Shown in pieces: positions 5,931-36,578 of a DNA stretch of 64,000 bases. The position numbers were made by a program, and so were the translations under genes. The notes below the pieces were generated by a model, which worked only from the letters and a program-made list of their open reading frames with translations, searched no databases and was not told the DNA's origin. Source of the stretch: Burkholderia sp. BCC1644. Its GTDB lineage: Bacteria; Pseudomonadota; Gammaproteobacteria; Burkholderiales; Burkholderiaceae. Numbering within the stretch: the stretch's first letter is position 1; each line of letters begins with the position of its first letter. The DNA lies in NCBI RefSeq assembly GCF_902833225.1, contig NZ_CADFEI010000023.1, positions 1 through 64,000 on the forward strand, written 5' to 3'.

Positions 5931-8900
5931 TCAGGATTTCAGCGGTCCACCGAATCCGCTCGTCGGCAGCTTCATGCCGGTTGCCCCCGCAGCGGATACC
6001 ACCGTCGTAGCGCCCTTGCCGGCGACGCCGGGCAGCGCCCCCTGCAGCATCCCGGATGCCGCGTTCGCGGCCGGCGCAGCCAGTGCGGCAAGGCCACCCT
6101 GCCGTGCAGCCTGTACCATCCCGGCGACCTGCTTCGCAGCGCTGCCGAGGCTCGAAGCCGTCTGTAACGCGGACACTGCGCCTGCGCCACCTAATGCACC
6201 CGCCGCAGCCGGCAACGCGGAGCTCGCCAGTCCGCCCAACGCAGCACCGGCCCCACCTCCGCTCGCAAGTCCCATCGCAGCCGTCGCAGCCGCAGGCGCC
6301 ATTCCCTTCAACTGGCTCGCAAGCTGCTCCGACGCAGCAGCCTGCGCCGCCTGCGGCGACGCCTCAACGGACTCGACTGGCCACTGCACCTGCTTGAAAT
6401 AATTCGCCGGTTGATCCGACTCGCGCGGATCCTTCCCGAACTCGACACGCACCGCGCCCGGCGGCAAACCGCTCACGGCCGTATAGCCGCTGTTGTCGAG
6501 CGCCCCCTTCTTCAGCACGGCGCCGTTCACGTCTTTCACCGTGAACAGCCCGCCCTTCACGGCCTCGCCGTTCACGTACTTGTGAAACAACTCCAGCTGC
6601 CCCGGCTGATCCGGCCGCGGGCTCGGCAACGGATACCCCATGCTCGCCGGCCCCGCGAACGTATGCGACGCACCCTTCACATCGACCGCGCCCGGCGTAT
6701 GAATCTCGATGTTCCCGCCTTGAATGCGGATATACCCGCCGCCGCTCGTCAGCAGGATCCCCTGATCGGCCGCGATCTCGATCCGATCCGTCGCCGACAC
6801 CACCTTCACCGCCTTCTGCGCGGTCACCTCGATGTTGTCCGACTGCGCCTGGATCTCGACCTTGCCCTTGCCGGCAAACAGCTTCATCCCCGCGTTCTGC
6901 ACGAACAGGCTCAGCTTCTGCCCAATGCTCCCGATCAGCGATTTGCCCGCGGCCACGTGCACGCTTTGCCCGCTCGCCACGTTCACATGATCGTTCGCGA
7001 CCACGTGCACCGACTGCTGCGTCGACATCCCGATTCCCGACGGGCTGCCGAACAGCATCACCGGTTCCTTGAACGCATTTGCGCTACCGGTGCCGCCACC
7101 TGCCGTGCGCCCGCCCGACGCGCTGCCCGATGCGCTGTCCTGCGTCGCGTCGGTGAACGCGCGCATCGTGTCGTGCGCGTCCTTCAGGCTTTCCGCCTGA
7201 TGCTGCTCGCTCACGCCCGACATCGCCTCGACCAGGCTCTCGCCCGTCACGAGCTGCTGCTGCGCTTCCTTCACGTCGAGCGGCTGGCTGTTCGCCGCCT
7301 TCGGGTGCGTCGTCACGTACAGGCCCTGGCTCGCGCGCACCGCGCCGTACGCATCCGATCGCAGGTCGAACCCGCTGCCCAGATACGCCCCGCGCGAATT
7401 CGCGCTGTGGTCGATGATGTAGCCCAGATGCAGCAGGCTGTTCGCGCTGCTGCTCATCAGTTGCACGCGGTTCTGGCCGGTCGCGTCGTCCATCACGAGC
7501 TGGTTGTACCCGCCGCCCGAATACTCCTTCGACCGGTAGCCGGACAGGATCCCGTCGCTATGCCACTGCGGCTGGTTCGCGCCGTTGTACACGCGCCCGA
7601 CGGCCAGCGGCCGGTCGCAGTCGCCGCCGACGTAGTCGATCAGCACTTCCTCGCCGATGCGCGGCACGTGCACGCCGCCGTAGCCGCCGCCCGTATCCGA
7701 TTGCACGACGCGCACCCAGCAGGATGCGTTCTCGTCGCCCGGATTCATCCGGTCCCACACGAACTGCACGCGGATCCGGTTCAGCGAGTCGGTATGGACC
7801 TCCTCGCCCTGCGGCCCGACGACGATCGCCGTCTCGAGATGCATCTCCGGTTTTTTGTGCTCGAACGGGCTGCGGTACGGCACGCTCACGCGCTGCGCCT
7901 CGACCTCGACGAGATAGAAGCCGGTCGATCCGTCGTCGTGCGGCACGCGAAACGCGGGACTGGCACCGTAGCGTTCCTGTGCGCCTGCCAATGCCTCGCG
8001 CAGGCTGTACGGAAAATCCGCGCTGTCGCTCGCAACGGGCAGGTTGTTCTCGATCCACCACGCGACCTCGATCGCGGCGAATTCGCGCTGACCGGCGGAA
8101 TCGCGATCGTGCTCGGGATGTTCTGCCAGCGTGAAGCGCCGGCCCGCATCGATCGCGCGCACGCCGCCCGCGCCATGGAAGCGCTTCGCCTGCGACTCCC
8201 ACTCCTCCATCTTGACCTTCGTCAGATGGTCGCCGCGCGTCTGGTCCAGATACGTATAAGCGCCCGTGTATTCGTACACCTCGAGCTGGTCGGGCAGTTC
8301 ACCCTGGCCGGCCATCGTCGGCAGCGACGTCCCTTTCGGATTCGACGGCTGCGCAGGATTCTTGTAATCGAACGTGCGCGTCGATCGCGTGACGCTCTGC
8401 AGCGTGCGCGTGCCCGACCATTGCGTGAACGCGTCGGCCCCGCTTGCCGCACCGCCGCGATAGAAGCTCACCGTTTCCGGTGACAGCGGCGCAAACGCCT
8501 GCAGGTTGTCGGTAATCACGAGCGTGTGCGACTTGCCGTCGTCGGCCTGCTGCCACGCGCAGTAGAGTCCCTCGTCCTCCATCAGGCGATGCACGAAATG
8601 CCAGTCGGTATCGTGCTGGCGCGTATACGAGCGATTCGGCAGCGGCTTCGACAGCGCGAAGCGGAAATGGCCCTTGGCCTGCGGATGATGGTTCAGCACG
8701 TCGCTGATGATCTGGTCGACGGTCGTGTCGTTCCAGAGCCGCTGGTCGCGACGGAACTTCAGGAAATGGGTGAAATCGGCGAACGTGAGCTGATAGGTCG
8801 TCAGTCCGCCGTCGGCGCCCAGCCGGCGCGCGGTATGCACGTATCCGTTGATCGGCCGATAGCTGCGGTTGCCTTGCTCGATCCACAGCGTGACAGGCTG

Positions 8901-9101
8901 CGCGATCAGTTTTTTAAGCTCCAGATCGCCTTCGGTCGACAGTACGTCGAGCGTAAACTCGTACGCGCGCCCGATGCGCGAGTGGCCGACTGCCCGCTGC
9001 ACGGTCAGGACGTCGCCCCCCAACGGCGTATCGAGCTTCAGCAACCGGTCCTGCTGAAGCAACCCGCCGCGCAACGCGGCGATTGTGTTCTGCATGTTCA
9101 T
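5931..9101 (-). CDS. vgrG: Type VI secretion system spike protein VgrG
   Basis: VgrG trimers form the puncturing tip of the type VI secretion machine and carry effectors. With the ATG at 9101 the protein has 1056 residues. Residues 1-430 match the gp27-like VI_Rhs_Vgr base, and about 440-515 the gp5-like OB fold (RVQFVWDRM, SCWVRVVQ, GEEVLIDYVGGD). A DUF2345-like beta-prism follows at about 690-830, then a small transthyretin-like segment (about 840-905). The last 120 residues are an unusual Ala/Gly-rich tail. An in-frame start at 9155 would add 18 basic residues; I prefer 9101, preceded by a purine-rich AAAAAAGG site, because the conserved VgrG sequence begins there. It is the first gene of the vgrG-rhs-immunity unit. 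No DUF4123, EagT6-like or PAAR adaptor gene lies between vgrG and rhs. Confidence 0.93.
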   Translation of the reverse strand: MNMQNTIAALRGGLLQQDRLLKLDTPLGGDVLTVQRAVGHSRIGRAYEFTLDVLSTEGDLELKKLIAQPVTLWIEQGNRSYRPINGYVHTARRLGADGGLTTYQLTFADFTHFLKFRRDQRLWNDTTVDQIISDVLNHHPQAKGHFRFALSKPLPNRSYTRQHDTDWHFVHRLMEDEGLYCAWQQADDGKSHTLVITDNLQAFAPLSPETVSFYRGGAASGADAFTQWSGTRTLQSVTRSTRTFDYKNPAQPSNPKGTSLPTMAGQGELPDQLEVYEYTGAYTYLDQTRGDHLTKVKMEEWESQAKRFHGAGGVRAIDAGRRFTLAEHPEHDRDSAGQREFAAIEVAWWIENNLPVASDSADFPYSLREALAGAQERYGASPAFRVPHDDGSTGFYLVEVEAQRVSVPYRSPFEHKKPEMHLETAIVVGPQGEEVHTDSLNRIRVQFVWDRMNPGDENASCWVRVVQSDTGGGYGGVHVPRIGEEVLIDYVGGDCDRPLAVGRVYNGANQPQWHSDGILSGYRSKEYSGGGYNQLVMDDATGQNRVQLMSSSANSLLHLGYIIDHSANSRGAYLGSGFDLRSDAYGAVRASQGLYVTTHPKAANSQPLDVKEAQQQLVTGESLVEAMSGVSEQHQAESLKDAHDTMRAFTDATQDSASGSASGGRTAGGGTGSANAFKEPVMLFGSPSGIGMSTQQSVHVVANDHVNVASGQSVHVAAGKSLIGSIGQKLSLFVQNAGMKLFAGKGKVEIQAQSDNIEVTAQKAVKVVSATDRIEIAADQGILLTSGGGYIRIQGGNIEIHTPGAVDVKGASHTFAGPASMGYPLPSPRPDQPGQLELFHKYVNGEAVKGGLFTVKDVNGAVLKKGALDNSGYTAVSGLPPGAVRVEFGKDPRESDQPANYFKQVQWPVESVEASPQAAQAAASEQLASQLKGMAPAAATAAMGLASGGGAGAALGGLASSALPAAAGALGGAGAVSALQTASSLGSAAKQVAGMVQAARQGGLAALAAPAANAASGMLQGALPGVAGKGATTVVSAAGATGMKLPTSGFGGPLKS

Positions 9102-9426
9102 GGCTACGGCCTTTTTTCTTTTGACGCGCCCTCGGATGGCGCGAGCACTGGACATCGCTCGCGCGATTTTACAGAGAAATTACGTCAGTCCCTGAAAACC
9201 CACCGGAATTGCAGACGCGTCATTCGTTCCGCCCGCACGCCGCCTGCACCCACGCCAGCCAGCCCGTGCCCCCGTCGTGCCCCCTGAAATCGATTGCAAT
9301 CAGGGCCAATTCGACTTCCGGCGCGGCGCGGTTGCGAGTAGTGTCTACGTGCCCGTATTCCGGCCTCACCCGGGTCCGACCGAGACCCGGCGCTCACCAC
9401 ACGACACTGAACCCTGGAGATCTGCG
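9102..9426. other. Divergent intergenic region between vgrG and the cystine-binding gene
   Basis: 325 bases without a gene between the leftward vgrG unit and a rightward gene, so it should hold both promoters. I see no convincing -35/-10 pair or operator. A ribosome site (CTGGAG) precedes the rightward start. Confidence 0.5.
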
Positions 9427-13864: not shown

Positions 13865-13868
13865 AATT

Positions 13869-13913
13869 TGGTGCCGGCTGCAGGACTCGAACCCGCCACC
13901 TGATGATTACAAA
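13869..13913 (-). repeat. Left att site: 45 bp duplicate of tRNA-Thr 3' end
   Basis: Identical over all 45 bases to 18071-18115, starting exactly at the CCA end of the tRNA and running through the T arm and the anticodon. The match stops at 13914 (G here, T in the tRNA gene), so this copy cannot fold into a tRNA. It marks the far junction of the islet. Confidence 0.9.
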
Positions 13914-13956
13914 GCAGTTGAAATTTTCAAGCATTACAAGCACTTAGGGAAGCATT

Positions 13957-14090: not shown

Positions 14091-14789
14091 ATGTCTCAGC
14101 TTGGCCTAACTGAATATGTAATGGCAGGCGCGACTCTACTCGGGCCCGTCCTTGCAGTTCAGGCGCAGAAGTGGGTGGAGCGGACTCGCGAAGCGACCAA
14201 TCGTAAGCAGATGGTCTTCACTACGTTGATGGCGACGCGGCAATCTCGAGTATCGATCGACCACGTTCGAGCGCTAAATTCCATCGACCTCGCATTTTAC
14301 GGCCGACGCATACTGGGAGTTCCGCTCCGCAGTCGGAAGGCCCAAGCAGTCCTCGACGCGTGGCACGACTACCACGCCCACCTCTCTGTCCCCCTCGAGC
14401 AGCGTCCGAACACCGAAGCCGAAACTCGGGAATGGAACGGGCGCGGCGACGAGTTGTTTACGAACCTGTTGGAGCGACTCGCTGCTGCTACTGCATACAA
14501 ATTCGATCGGCAACAATTGAAATCTGGCAGCTATTCACCGGAGGCGCACGGGACAGTCGAACTCGAGCAAAATCTCTTACGGCGATTCGTCCTCGAGTTG
14601 TTGGCGGGCGATCGCACTCTCCCGTTGGATGTGCGGACAATACAGGTGGACCCAGACGCGGCAGCAAGACAACATGACTTCCAAGAACGTGTGGTTACCG
14701 CTCAGGCGGAGATCGCTATGAAGTTGGGCGAAGCCATCGATCGTCTAGCACCTACGCGCGTCAACGATAACGCTCACGCCGAACGATAA
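14091..14789 (+). CDS. DUF6680-like membrane-anchored hypothetical protein
   Basis: A 232-residue protein with one N-terminal hydrophobic segment (YVMAGATLLGPVLAVQ) and then RKQMVFTTLMATRQSRVS, followed by a helical body. From memory this pattern, GP-LAVQAQKW then KTLMATR, matches proteins annotated DUF6680, whose function is not established. The ATG at 14091 follows the islet's left-end repeats directly; a long upstream in-frame extension would run through the att site and is not credible. It is first in a rightward series of islet genes, with 182 bases before the next, so it may be expressed separately. One topology is a single anchor with a cytoplasmic domain. Confidence 0.75.
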   Translation: MSQLGLTEYVMAGATLLGPVLAVQAQKWVERTREATNRKQMVFTTLMATRQSRVSIDHVRALNSIDLAFYGRRILGVPLRSRKAQAVLDAWHDYHAHLSVPLEQRPNTEAETREWNGRGDELFTNLLERLAAATAYKFDRQQLKSGSYSPEAHGTVELEQNLLRRFVLELLAGDRTLPLDVRTIQVDPDAAARQHDFQERVVTAQAEIAMKLGEAIDRLAPTRVNDNAHAER

Positions 14790-14971
14790 AAATGACCGCA
14801 GGCGGTCGTTAGCCGGGGTGTATGCTTCGCTGACACGATGTCCGCGCCCGAACGTCCAGTGCGCAACGGAAGCGCTAGATGCAAATGGTGTATCCTACTC
14901 GGCCGTCCGGCTCGGCCGTCCGGCCGGCTCTGTCTCTGGTTAGTGGTCGATGTTCTCTTGGAGAAACACAG

Positions 14972-15616
14972 ATGGAGCTGCAAAGCGACAAGATGACCCT
15001 GGTAATTGCAGGGGCTTGGAATCCGGCAATCTTGACCCCACAGTGGATCGCCCAGCATGTGCTCGGCTTTCCTGCCGACCGTGACTTCCAAGTCGGCGTG
15101 GAGTTGCCGATACAGGAATATGGGCAAGCACCACGGTTCAGTTTTGAATCGCTATCGGTGATGGCTACGCCGGCCACACTGCTGTTTGCTTTGAACGCTG
15201 ATGACCGTCCCCACGTACAGAAGACATTCGAAGTTGCCGCGAAGGTACTAGAGCTTCTCCCTCATACTCCTGTCTCTGGTGTCGGTGTAAATTTCATGTT
15301 CACTGACACGAAACCCGATGCCAATGTCGCGACTACGTTTCGCTCGCACGACGGTGTACTCGCAAAACTCCCGGACGAGGAGCAGAACGCCACGATTGTG
15401 CAGCAATCGTGGCAAGCTACAGTGAAACTAAGCGATCACTTAGCGAATGTGAATTGCATCAAGCGAGGCGATCGATTCGAAGTGGCGATAAACCATCACT
15501 TCAACGTAAGTTCGGCAGTCGGAGCGAAGCGAATAGTGGAAAACCCCGAAGCGTTCGACACACTCTTGGGTCTGTCCAGAATTATCATTGACGGGTTGGA
15601 TGATGGAGAAAAGTGA
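14972..15616 (+). CDS. Islet hypothetical protein (214 aa), first of a coupled trio
   Basis: A 214-residue soluble protein that I do not recognise. It begins MELQSDKMTLVIAGAWNPA and has alternating strand-like and helical stretches, with no signal peptide, membrane segment or catalytic motif. Its size and mixed fold vaguely recall TIGR04255-type proteins of defence islands, but no diagnostic motif supports that. The start at 14972 has a TGGAGA site 8 bases upstream. Two tandem 13 bp repeats (CTCGGCCGTCCGG, 14898-14923) lie in the leader. Its stop overlaps the next start in ATGA form, so the two are translationally coupled. Confidence 0.7.
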   Translation: MELQSDKMTLVIAGAWNPAILTPQWIAQHVLGFPADRDFQVGVELPIQEYGQAPRFSFESLSVMATPATLLFALNADDRPHVQKTFEVAAKVLELLPHTPVSGVGVNFMFTDTKPDANVATTFRSHDGVLAKLPDEEQNATIVQQSWQATVKLSDHLANVNCIKRGDRFEVAINHHFNVSSAVGAKRIVENPEAFDTLLGLSRIIIDGLDDGEK

Positions 15617-15972
15617 TGAAAAAAATAGAGACCAACGCATTGTCCACCAATATGAATTTTGACATCGGAGCAAAGGAATTTGCCTACGATGCCGGTGCGT
15701 CCCGCGGTACAACTGCGATCGAAAATCGCTTCACCACTACGTCGCCGTCTGCCGCCAAAATTTCAGAGCCATGGTTTAGCGAATCAAGTCTCGTTCAGGG
15801 AACCGCTCCCCATAACCGTCCGCGGACGGTGTCAGTAAACGTAACATCGTCTACCGCCACGGTGACATTAGCTGTGAAACCGTCCGTAATCGCCTCGGAG
15901 GAGCGCCAACAGCGCCTAAACGAGTCCATCCGACTTGGCTTTTTACCGCCCAGCCGAAACACAGCCGCCTGA
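15616..15972 (+). CDS. Islet hypothetical protein (118 aa), Ser/Thr-rich
   Basis: A 118-residue protein starting MKKIETNALSTNMNFDIG. Residues 30-90 are low-complexity Ser/Thr/Ala (for example SVNVTSSTATVTLAV), probably flexible or beta-rich, and a charged helix EERQQRLNESIRLG closes the protein. No family is recognised. ATG at 15616 overlaps the previous stop (ATGA); a GTG one codon earlier is an alternative. The next gene starts two bases after its stop. Sandwiched position and small size fit a linker, adaptor or regulatory subunit of the trio. Confidence 0.65.
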   Translation: MKKIETNALSTNMNFDIGAKEFAYDAGASRGTTAIENRFTTTSPSAAKISEPWFSESSLVQGTAPHNRPRTVSVNVTSSTATVTLAVKPSVIASEERQQRLNESIRLGFLPPSRNTAA

Positions 15973-15974
15973 AT

Positions 15975-16907
15975 ATGAATGAGACCGAATTCGGCAGCCT
16001 TGGGGAGGCGACCGACATCCGGGCCGACACGGCCCCTGTGCCGAATTTGTACAAGGCCACCCCTAATAGATGCCTAGAACAAGGCGATTTGATCCAGAAA
16101 GACTCGGATTTCGTTCGCGGTCCGCTGACTACTTACCATCGGTATCACGTTGAGAACGAGGCAAACGAGATGTTTGCCGTTCTGACACAGTCCTGCGACC
16201 TTGCACGCCGCGGTGACGCCCCCTGCAAGGCGCGATACATCTCGGTCGCGCCGGTTCGCTCTGTTCGTCATGCCCTCGCGCGCAATTTTGATAATTTCTT
16301 AGTGCGCACGCCTGGTGGATTGTTTTCCATCGGCTCTACAGAGACAGAGGCTCGCTACAAAGATTTTCTGTCGAAGCTGATAAATAATAACGATAGTCGA
16401 TATTTCTATCTTCCTTCGCGACCGGAGCTCGGCTTGGCAGAAGACAGTTGCATAATGCTTCCGCTTGCCTTACCGGTTAAAGTCGAGCACTACGACCTTT
16501 GTACCCAAGGCCGCATCGCGCAATTGGATGATCTGTTTCAAGCCAAGCTAGGCTGGTCAATTGGCCAGCAATACTCGCGGGTGGGCACACCGGACTGGCC
16601 GGACGACGAGCTCGACAAAAAAGTGACCGCGTTAAGCGAGCGAACACAGGTATGGTTCCCACCAAACGACTTTGATCAGTTGAGAAATTTTATCCAGGAT
16701 TTTGAGACGAACAATCCAGGTCAGACGCTAACACTGGAAGATCTCGAATCGCTCCGCGTGAAAATAAAGAACCGAAAGGAATTGGCAATAGATGCCATTT
16801 TCGATCTGTTAAATGACATTCTGCCCCCACCCGGAAAAGACAGATTCAATATTCGAAAGAAACTTCGACAAAGCTCTGATTTTTCAAAATTCTTTCCTAA
16901 TTCGTAA
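15975..16907 (+). CDS. Islet hypothetical protein (310 aa) with TQSCDLA motif
   Basis: A 310-residue soluble protein, last of the islet trio. A notable segment is EMFAVLTQSCDLARRG (about residues 65-80), followed by ARYISVAPVRSV; similar (T/S)Q-x-CD motifs occur in uncharacterised proteins near defence genes, but I cannot name a family. The middle has aromatic and charged patches (RYFYLPSRPELGL). The C-terminal third is helical and charged. It starts two bases after the preceding stop. The Cys-Asp pair could be catalytic or metal-binding; that is a guess. AT-rich codon use (runs of AAT, TTA) sets it apart from flanking chromosomal genes. Confidence 0.72.
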   Translation: MNETEFGSLGEATDIRADTAPVPNLYKATPNRCLEQGDLIQKDSDFVRGPLTTYHRYHVENEANEMFAVLTQSCDLARRGDAPCKARYISVAPVRSVRHALARNFDNFLVRTPGGLFSIGSTETEARYKDFLSKLINNNDSRYFYLPSRPELGLAEDSCIMLPLALPVKVEHYDLCTQGRIAQLDDLFQAKLGWSIGQQYSRVGTPDWPDDELDKKVTALSERTQVWFPPNDFDQLRNFIQDFETNNPGQTLTLEDLESLRVKIKNRKELAIDAIFDLLNDILPPPGKDRFNIRKKLRQSSDFSKFFPNS

Positions 16908-17616
16908 AATTTACGCTCGCACGTAACCACTTCAAATCTGCGCGCGGCTCATAAATCGCTCTGTTGCCAGAGCGATAAAGCTACAAAATGCGCCGTGCGT
17001 GGCGTTGGCATGCATCAAAGGGCACGAGTGCCAGGAAAGCGAGATCTCGCCAGCATTAGCGCCAGTCGGCCCAGTGCACGCGGGACAGACTTAGCGAAGG
17101 ATTGGGGCGGGCGGTAGAAAGAGGTCTAAAGCGTTACGCCGGTGGCCCCTGCTCATTCTCAGCGGAACACTGCCCCCGCCCGTGAAGCGCACCGCCCCGG
17201 CAGAGAGGGACAGGTATCATCGTCAGGGCTAGCAAGGCTGCATAACCAAGGCGCATAAAAGTGCATAGGCGAATCCGCCCACCGATCGCCGCGCGGTCCG
17301 TGCTGGCCGGGCCCGAGCGGCCAGTGCATGCGTGCACAAAAACCACTCAATTCGGCGGGCAGGTGGGGCGGGGCTACAACTGCGCGCGCCGGATCCGAAT
17401 CAGCCCGCCCTAGGGGTCGAACCGCCCCCAAGGGCTGCACCTGCCACGTGCACACAGCCCCCGCCACGGGCCTGCTGCGCGCTACCCCACCAGGGCGACC
17501 AGCGACCGACCGCTCTGAGGACACGTGAACCCGCCGACTCCGTGCATGGATACAGGCGAAAAATGCCGCCCAGCACCGAAGTCCCAGGCAGCTCTCTGCT
17601 GCGCCAACCACTCTCG
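16908..17616. other. 709-base islet stretch without a convincing gene
   Basis: AT-rich at first, then strongly GC-rich from about 17130. Open frames here are Arg/Pro-rich, overlap on both strands and lack ribosome sites. A 17-base motif GCCCGAGCGGCCAGTGC at 17311-17327 recurs with two changes at 14846-14862. The stretch may be decayed sequence, a regulatory or replication region, or an RNA gene; nothing decides between these. Confidence 0.5.
16955..16976. terminator. Hairpin after the islet trio
   Basis: ATCGCTCT and AGAGCGAT pair perfectly around a six-base loop, 47 bases after the stop of the 310-residue gene. No T run follows on the plus strand, so termination is only possible, not shown. 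Confidence 0.4.
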
Positions 17617-17862
17617 TCAGACGTCAACCTGCGCGTCCGTGATGCCGAGCGCGGCGGCGATCTTCTCGCGCGTCGACTTGCGCAGCTTCTCGCTGCTCTC
17701 CTGTTGAGCGTAGGCGGACTGGCTGATGCCGAGTCGCGTCGCGACTTCGACCTGCGTCAGCCCGAAATATTCGCGCCACGCACGCAGGGGCGTCACCCCG
17801 TCGACCGTTGCGCTGACAACTTCATGAGGAATCAAATCGCGATCTTCTCGGCGCTGCGTCAT
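17617..17862 (-). CDS. XRE-family helix-turn-helix regulator
   Basis: An 81-residue protein with an HTH_3 domain over about residues 30-75: LRAWREYFGLTQVEVATRLG then ISQSAYAQQE, the recognition helix region. It looks like the antitoxin half of a HigBA/RelE-type pair, but only about 200 bases separate its start from the tRNA and no toxin frame is present there. It is the only leftward gene of the islet and sits at the tRNA end, where excision or gene-expression regulators are often found. It may control islet genes or be an orphaned antitoxin. Confidence 0.75.
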   Translation of the reverse strand: MTQRREDRDLIPHEVVSATVDGVTPLRAWREYFGLTQVEVATRLGISQSAYAQQESSEKLRKSTREKIAAALGITDAQVDV

Positions 17863-18000
17863 GTGTTACTCGGAGGGGATCGTCATGAGGGCTTGCACTC
17901 ATTCCGGCCCGCGACTTGCTTTGCGACAAGACGGAACCCTTGCTTGAAGAAACGCTACGTACACAGCACGTAGCTGAACAAGCCTGTTCGCCAATGCAGA

Positions 18001-18010
18001 TTGGAAATGC
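18001..18010 (+). repeat. Arm-type repeat, right end (one mismatch)
   Basis: TTGGAAATGC, one base different from the TTGGAAACGC copies. It is spaced 20 bases from the next copy and 61 bases inside the right junction. Confidence 0.45.
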
Positions 18011-18020
18011 CGAGGGGGAA

Positions 18021-18030
18021 TTGGAAACGC
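18021..18030 (+). repeat. Arm-type repeat, right end
   Basis: TTGGAAACGC, identical to 14020-14029 at the other end of the islet and 41 bases inside the right junction. Confidence 0.5.
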
Positions 18031-18031
18031 G

Positions 18032-18062
18032 AAGGGGCTACGCAAACATCGCGTAACCCCTT
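18032..18062 (-). terminator. Islet-borne terminator for tRNA-Thr
   Basis: AAGGGGCTACGC (18032-18043) pairs with GCGTAACCCCTT (18051-18062), one G-T type mismatch, loop of seven. Read leftward it starts nine bases past the tRNA CCA end. It replaces the original terminator, now 4.2 kb away at 13831-13864. Confidence 0.65.
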
Positions 18063-18070
18063 GTCAGATA

Positions 18071-18146
<76 letters not shown>

Positions 18147-36338: not shown

Positions 36339-36578
36339 TTATGCGTTCTGCCATTCGGCGGGCGTCAGCGTCTTCATGCTGAGTGCGTGAATTTCCTGCT
36401 TCATGCGATCGCCGAGCGCCGCGTAGACGAGCTGGTGCCGCTGGATCGGACGCTTGCCTTCGAAGGCCGCCGACACGATCGTCGCGAAGAAATGCTGGCC
36501 GTCGCCTTCGACTTCCAGATGCGTGCAGGCGAGACCGCCGGCGATGTATTGCTTGACCTGTTCGGGAGTCGGCAACAT
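36339..36578 (-). CDS. ibaG: BolA-family protein IbaG
   Basis: A 79-residue BolA-like protein that, with monothiol glutaredoxin, handles iron-sulfur clusters. The conserved His-containing RHQLVYAALGDRMKQEIHALS helix region and HLEVEGDGQHF strand fit the family. Position beside murA and downstream of the mla genes is the same as in E. coli, which favours ibaG over bolA. Confidence 0.9.
   Translation of the reverse strand: MLPTPEQVKQYIAGGLACTHLEVEGDGQHFFATIVSAAFEGKRPIQRHQLVYAALGDRMKQEIHALSMKTLTPAEWQNA

What the first reader, a model, noticed from the sequence alone, without database searches (positions are those of the whole stretch)
14091..16907. Uncharacterised islet gene set, candidate new defence or satellite system
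Three genes (214, 118 and 310 residues) are coupled by an ATGA overlap and a 2-base gap, so they almost certainly make one multi-protein system. A DUF6680-like membrane-anchored protein precedes them. None matches a family with a known activity that I can name. The 310-residue protein has a TQSCDLA motif and the 118-residue one is Ser/Thr-rich. The setting, a small AT-richer cargo islet in a tRNA with no transfer genes, is where phage-defence modules are often found. The defence role is inference.
Basis: partly seen in the sequence, partly recalled or inferred. Interest (0 to 1): 0.75.

Follow-up and report, generated by a model that had tools for sequence, protein, structure and literature searches.

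The report
Phage-remnant islet with candidate defence trio
A small DNA islet in a bacterium looks like what is left of a P2-like virus, and it still carries three linked genes that travel together in other bacteria and sit where such viruses often keep weapons against other viruses; that role is likely but unproven.

Summary
The trio is real: genes A (14972-15616), B (15616-15972) and C (15975-16907) are coupled and have no significant match in Pfam, NCBIfam, PADLOC or PHROGs. They recur in the same order in 6 of 6 loci with an intact C. In 2 of 4 loci with readable upstream DNA they follow a type I R-M system. C is homologous to the output domain of response-regulator-like proteins encoded beside R-M genes (hhalign 98.1%; four other pairs at most 0.7%). 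A recurs in another three-gene operon ending in a metallo-beta-lactamase. The islet is a 4,202-bp insertion between 51-bp tRNA-Thr repeats, absent from a same-species genome. Its right part is a P2-family cos site plus a truncated regulator, 77-81% identical to phage AP3. So it is most likely a P2-like prophage remnant that kept its cos-adjacent cargo, the place where E. coli P2-like phages carry anti-phage systems (PMC9122126). At the same tRNA another species holds the defence candidate HEC-01A/B. Defence is the best reading, not shown. DUF6680 was not found with the trio elsewhere.

The parts
13866..13916 (.). left copy of the 51-bp tRNA-Thr end repeat (attachment-site-like)
   Evidence: 96% identical to 18068-18118, spacing 4202; single copy in same-species genome G1072
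14091..14789 (+). DUF6680 gene; islet cargo, probably not part of the trio
   Evidence: PF20385 E 1.6e-44; not found in any other fetched locus
14972..15616 (+). gene A, 214 aa, candidate sensor/adaptor
   Evidence: conserved in 6 of 6 loci with intact C; distant relative in A'-X-MBL operons
15616..15972 (+). gene B, 118 aa, small Ser/Thr-rich linker protein, conserved mainly in its C-terminal part
   Evidence: same place in 6 of 6 loci; profile of three found the other three at E 8e-6 to 3e-5
15975..16907 (+). gene C, 310 aa, TQSCDL protein, candidate effector or output
17235..17420 (+). P2-family phage cos region (AP3 cosL maps to 17361-17381)
   Evidence: 81% to AP3 36353-36499, 77% from AP3 base 1; 38-bp core with two differences from five phages and the G010 islet
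17617..17862 (-). truncated HTH regulator of the phage (81 aa; AP3 homologue 109 aa)
   Evidence: AP3 residues 11-108 at 79%; DNA match ends at 17911, inside the gene; phrog_7241 positions 45-120 of 122
17911..18067 (.). right arm next to the tRNA, partly shared with other elements at this site
18068..18118 (.). right copy of the 51-bp repeat, 3' end of tRNA-Thr
18071..18146 (-). tRNA-Thr(TGT), integration target

Best explanation
The islet is the remnant of a P2-like (Peduoviridae, AP3-related) prophage in tRNA-Thr. A large internal deletion took the integrase, replication and virion genes and left both tRNA-end repeats, a right arm, a truncated regulator, the cos site and the accessory genes beside cos. 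Those accessory genes include a three-protein module, A-B-C, that most likely protects the cell (or the lysogen's own prophage) against other phages or mobile DNA. Proposed mechanism (inferred): A is the recognition or adaptor subunit, because relatives of A stand first in operons with a different last gene (MBL fold). C is the output subunit, because it shares its domain with the C-terminal part of R-M-linked response-regulator-like proteins, where a receiver controls it. B is a small linker that couples or restrains them. A trigger of infection or of R-M failure frees C to act on the phage or stop the cell. Shown: anatomy, conservation, homologies, cos, empty site. Inferred: the deletion history, the role of each protein, defence.
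For: Trio in order in 6 of 6 loci with intact C. Type I R-M directly upstream in two (HsdR and HsdM named by PDB matches). C versus RR output domain: hhalign 98.1%, E 7e-14; reverse search of the own genome hits C at E 3.4e-4 over profile positions 216-341. A versus A': 96.4%; reverse search of the own genome finds only A, E 0.03. A'-X-MBL operons in two organisms. Clean empty site in G1072. cos plus regulator. Largely AP3-like prophage at the same tRNA in G059 and another deleted one in G010 with cos and a C5-methyltransferase. HEC-01A/B between repeats at this tRNA in G041. Phage cargo beside cos: C5-MTase and Vsr, reverse transcriptase, DprA-like and PRTase. E. coli P2 cos-adjacent hotspot with tested anti-phage systems (PMC9122126 passages).
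Against: No phage phenotype. No PADLOC match for A, B or C. The trio is rare: 1 of 101 relatives, 2 of 369 in the class, 2 of 398 in the phylum, 1 of 65 in the own genus. In 5 Bradyrhizobium-like genomes C is broken, so it is often lost. R-M adjacency is absent in the window and in L006. The forward C profile missed 2 of 5 RR proteins and hit a third only at E 0.02. Of 8 proteins from 5 islets at the tRNA site, PADLOC gave strong defence hits to two, both in G041. C, A and the RR domain have no known biochemical activity.
Confidence: 0.58

Rival explanations
1. A-B-C is an accessory of restriction-modification: it senses or regulates R-M activity (alleviation, or a guard that acts when R-M fails) and is an orphan in this islet.
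For: Trio begins 302 bp after hsdR in L011 and 142 bp after it in G362; C's domain is the output domain of RR-like proteins beside C5-methyltransferase, Vsr and MvaI/BcnI genes.
Against: No R-M gene in the islet and none seen next to the trio in Crenothrix L006.
Confidence: 0.17
2. The islet is not a dead remnant but a minimal, integrase-less cos satellite: a P2-like helper supplies integrase and terminase, and the element carries only ends, cos and cargo.
For: Both ends and a nearly conserved cos core kept; a reduced element with a similar right-arm-to-regulator junction in G016; an AP3-related prophage (primase 98%, integrase 94%) elsewhere in the own genome.
Against: G010 shows plain deletion debris (integrase and portal fragments beside cos). 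The regulator is truncated. No cos match in the five own-genome stretches fetched, and the resident AP3-type integrase need not act at tRNA-Thr. No sign of excision or packaging was looked for.
Confidence: 0.2
3. A-B-C serves the phage, for example against host restriction or in lysogeny control, rather than host defence.
For: Phage-borne position here and in L061; a distant C relative beside virion genes in L012.
Against: Chromosomal copies sit directly behind complete hsd genes, which an anti-restriction gene would disable.
Confidence: 0.1
4. A-B-C is an addiction (toxin-antitoxin) unit that stabilises the element.
For: Tight coupling, a small partially disordered-looking B, mobile setting.
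Against: No match to toxin-antitoxin families; three conserved genes, not two.
Confidence: 0.1

Closest known systems
P2-like phage cos-adjacent defence hotspot (Rousset et al. 2022, PMC9122126; passages seen)
   Same: variable accessory genes directly beside a P2-family cos site; systems of unnamed domains occur there, one of them three genes with no clear domain that protects against P1
   Different: Burkholderia-type phage relatives, not E. coli; the neighbours gpA and gpQ are missing here; our genes have no PADLOC match. The sequences of that three-gene system were not compared.
[quoted passage not shown] 2021, PMC8011034; abstract, passages and section 7 seen)
   Same: C aligns with the C-terminal output part of RR-like proteins that lie beside GHKL ATPases and R-M genes
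   Different: C has no receiver and no kinase partner; it comes with A and B. The RR proteins used did not match PF19192, so they are of that type by layout only.
A'-X-MBL operon (unnamed; G557 and Adhaeribacter swui plasmid)
   Same: first gene homologous to A; three coupled genes
   Different: second gene unrelated to B and third unrelated to C by hhalign; third is an MBL-fold protein weakly like MBL proteins of defence systems
P4-like satellites (PMC8628076; passages seen)
   Same: cos shared with P2-like phages and defence cargo beside it
   Different: no integrase, psu, delta, sid or alpha-like gene seen in this islet

Membership tests
P2-type cos-adjacent defence cargo | P2-family cos site next to the genes | tested here: met
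P2-type cos-adjacent defence cargo | placed between replication gene gpA and portal gpQ | tested here: inconclusive
   both genes are absent from the islet; no AP3 gpA-like or portal match in the window
P2-type cos-adjacent defence cargo | anti-phage activity | not testable with these tools
   needs phage assays
P4-like or PICI satellite | own integrase | tested here: not met
   three integrase types from this tRNA site and AP3 integrase find nothing in the islet; no integrase ORF
P4-like or PICI satellite | capsid-hijack or satellite replication genes | tested here: not met
   islet ORFs A, B, C, DUF6680 and HTH have no such match
R-M-linked TCS-like pair (Response_reg_2/HEF_HK) | receiver domain in the output protein | tested here: not met
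   no receiver match in C; alignment covers only the output part
R-M-linked TCS-like pair (Response_reg_2/HEF_HK) | GHKL/kinase partner gene | tested here: not met
   none among islet ORFs
Known defence systems in PADLOC-DB 2.0.0 | match of A, B or C to any model | tested here: not met
   no match at E up to 1
Type I R-M system | hsdM, hsdS, hsdR with the trio | tested here: not met
   present upstream in L011 and G362 but not in the window islet
Toxin-antitoxin module | toxicity of one gene relieved by another | not testable with these tools
   needs expression assays

The most novel reading that the evidence does not exclude
A-B-C is the first recognised form of a modular immune family: a shared recognition subunit (A) plugged into different effectors (C or an MBL protein), with an effector domain (C) that elsewhere is held by a receiver in R-M-linked two-component-like systems. 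It would be an immune circuit that watches R-M or infection and is carried by cos elements so reduced that they may move only with a P2-like helper.
Probability: 0.27. Interest if true: 0.8.

Novelty: new variant of a known kind. Interest (0 to 1): 0.6.

Why it matters
It gives three unnamed protein families a place: cargo beside a P2-type cos site, next to type I R-M elsewhere, with C homologous to the undescribed output domain of R-M-linked response regulators and A shared with an MBL operon. That makes an open question testable: what does the output domain of these R-M-linked regulators do? It also shows a tRNA-Thr site where P2-like prophages decay while cos and cargo remain.

Tried and rejected
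Rejected: DUF6680 as part of the system (tblastn against all loci fetched by then found it only in window-derived loci). Rejected: C or A as members of a PDB family (best E 0.046 and 0.022). Rejected: B related to X, C related to the MBL protein. Rejected: vertical presence in the species (same-species genome has an empty site; 1 of 65 genomes in the genus has C). Rejected as chance: weak Pfam, NCBIfam and PADLOC matches of A, B and DUF6680 such as Peptidase_C33 (0.094), UbiH (0.011), Cas8b (0.0015), tRNA-synt_1f (0.0062). Led nowhere: C in plasmids and phages, A of L007 in plasmids, L012 protein in phages and IMG/VR beyond itself, A of L007 and A' in IMG/VR, motif strings and DUF6680 and HEC-01 in papers, promoter and terminator scan, integrase of the L113 type in the own genome (three matches, best 42% identical, on other contigs). 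A MazF/PemK-like barrel for the N-terminal part of C was considered by eye only and not tested.

Gene calls on A'-X-MBL, hsdS, GHKL in L106 and the cargo of L105-L118 that are not tied to a call above were read by eye. The PDB search for the L106 GHKL-like protein found nothing at E up to 0.01. HsdR of L011 matched PDB HsdR only over residues 668-727, E 1.6e-6.

Full report
What is there. The window holds three coupled genes: A 14972-15616, B 15616-15972, C 15975-16907. A and B overlap by one base, and B and C are two bases apart. None has a significant match in Pfam, NCBIfam, PADLOC-DB or PHROGs; the weak matches of A (NCBIfam, E 0.011) and B (Pfam, E 0.094) lie far below the curated cut-offs. 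The DUF6680 gene (14091-14789) is a clear Pfam member but was found in none of the other loci fetched.

The trio is a unit. Related C genes were sought in 101 relatives (1 match, the window itself), 369 genomes of the class (2), 398 of the phylum (2), 242 of one alphaproteobacterial genus (8) and 65 of the own genus (1); these sets overlap. One scan of genome contigs gave 5 loci, and the C queries to IMG/VR gave 2 contigs. All six have A and B directly upstream in the same order. Identity to the window is 30-52% for C, 26-38% for A and 17-38% for B. L061 has A, B and the start of C before its contig ends. In Nitrobacter (L008) the unit is split around transposase-like genes. Of the 8 matches, one is intact (G1034), five have C in pieces (G494, G843, G895, G956, G1019), one shows only a C-terminal piece near a contig end (G908) and one is the response-regulator protein discussed below (G866); no A was found in the stretches fetched for the broken ones.

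Neighbours. In L011 and G362 the trio begins 302 and 142 bp behind hsdR of a type I R-M locus. HsdM and HsdR were confirmed by PDB matches (the L011 HsdR match is short, E 1.6e-6). The window and L006 have no R-M gene there; L007 and L009 lack enough upstream sequence. So 2 of 4 readable loci. L061 lies behind virion-like genes read by eye.

C and R-M-linked response regulators. G866 matched the C profile through a 357-aa protein with a weak receiver match (PF00072, E 0.00097), in a cluster with a GHKL double ATPase, an MvaI/BcnI endonuclease and, by eye, a Vsr-like and a C5-methyltransferase gene. Relatives of that protein lie in G524, G352 and G695 and on Campylobacter plasmids beside a sensor kinase and a cytosine methyltransferase. 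Profile against profile, C aligns with their C-terminal part over 133 columns (probability 98.1%, E 7e-14), from the TQSCD region to the R-x-G-x-P-D/N motif. Four other pairs gave 0.7, 0.1, 0.1 and 0.3%. In the reverse direction the response-regulator profile searched over the own genome hits C at E 3.4e-4 in its output part; the other three hits are to receivers. Against this, the C profile by plain hmmsearch found L037 (29 bits) and L051 (20 bits), L052 only at E 0.02, and missed L050 and L053. The layout is that of the TCS-like pairs of Bellieny-Rabelo et al. 2021 (PMC8011034), of which I saw the abstract, passages and section 7; what I saw treats the receiver and kinase parts. The proteins used here did not match PF19192.

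A and an MBL operon. The A profile found a distant relative in G557 (E 1.3e-5), followed by a 214-aa gene and an MBL-fold gene. The same order occurs on an Adhaeribacter swui plasmid. A against A': 96.4%, E 1.2e-9; searching the own genome with A' gives A alone, at E 0.03. The MBL protein keeps an HxHxDH motif (by eye) and resembles MBL proteins of DRT and Lamassu models in PADLOC (E 8e-6 and 9.9e-6).

The islet. A 51-bp repeat of the tRNA-Thr end lies at 13866-13916 and 18068-18118, 4,202 bp apart. In G1072 (same species) the two flanks meet at a single copy. Seventeen of 61 genomes in the genus, own included, have a second copy within 40 kb on the same contig (counted). The right part of the islet, 17235-17911, is the cos region of P2-like Burkholderia phages: AP3 36353-36499 then 1-559 (81% and 77%), with matches in 12 phage records. 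The 38-bp cos core differs at two positions from five phages and the G010 islet, which are identical to one another there. The HTH gene next to cos has lost its start relative to AP3. No integrase match was found in the islet.

Relatives of the islet at the same tRNA. G059 has sheath, gpD and primase 91-93% identical to AP3 beside the tRNA, with a second repeat 35 kb away and an integrase next to the tRNA. G010 has an integrase fragment, a portal fragment (92% to AP3), cos, and a C5-methyltransferase between the repeats. G016 has the right arm and pieces of the regulator. G041 has HEC-01A and HEC-01B (E 3.5e-161 and 1e-83) between repeats. Eight proteins from five such loci were given to PADLOC: two strong hits (G041), one weak hit of a T6SS immunity protein, five without any. 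The own genome has an AP3-related prophage elsewhere (primase 98%, integrase 94%); no cos match was seen in the five own-genome stretches fetched.

Reading. One internal deletion of an AP3-like prophage, from the integrase side to the regulator beside cos, gives the islet's order: repeat, cargo, cos, cut regulator, right arm, repeat. In P2-like coliphages the cos-adjacent place holds anti-phage systems (PMC9122126, passages). In the Burkholderia phages it holds a C5-methyltransferase and Vsr (Menos), a reverse transcriptase (KS5), and DprA-like and PRTase genes (Mana), a pair whose E. coli version was found protective in that paper. This, the R-M neighbourhood and HEC-01 at the same tRNA make anti-phage or anti-mobile-DNA defence the best reading for A-B-C. 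The division of labour (A recognises, B links, C acts) is inference from which parts are shared with other operons. No mechanism step was tested.

Limits. R-M adjacency was seen in two loci only and not tested against chance. The host name is not given by any tool; Burkholderia is inferred from the AP3-like prophage and phage matches. The count of loci is small, and the pattern-based scans will have missed relatives.

Noticed in passing
G041 = L104:4851-7350: HEC-01A/B (AAA_21 and DUF4276) between tRNA-Thr repeats at the same site in another species.
   Followed up: partly
L106:636-8814: Another reduced P2-like element at the same tRNA: integrase fragment, portal fragment, cos, C5-methyltransferase and a GHKL-like gene read by eye.
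   Followed up: partly
L062:6433-8816 and L063:4965-7315: Unnamed three-gene operon A'-X-MBL in a proteobacterium and a Bacteroidota plasmid, possibly a second new system.
   Followed up: partly
L012:1-1068: Distant C relative at the cut left end of a viral contig, next to virion-like genes.
   Followed up: partly
G000:C10:136000-155500 (L134): AP3-related P2-like prophage in the window's own genome (primase 98%, integrase 94% to AP3).
   Followed up: partly
L097:4993-6800: TsiV immunity gene and a VRR-NUC-like gene between the response regulator and tRNA-Thr in G037.
   Followed up: no
window 5931-9155: Large VgrG-like T6SS spike gene (by eye) some 5 kb left of the islet.
   Followed up: no
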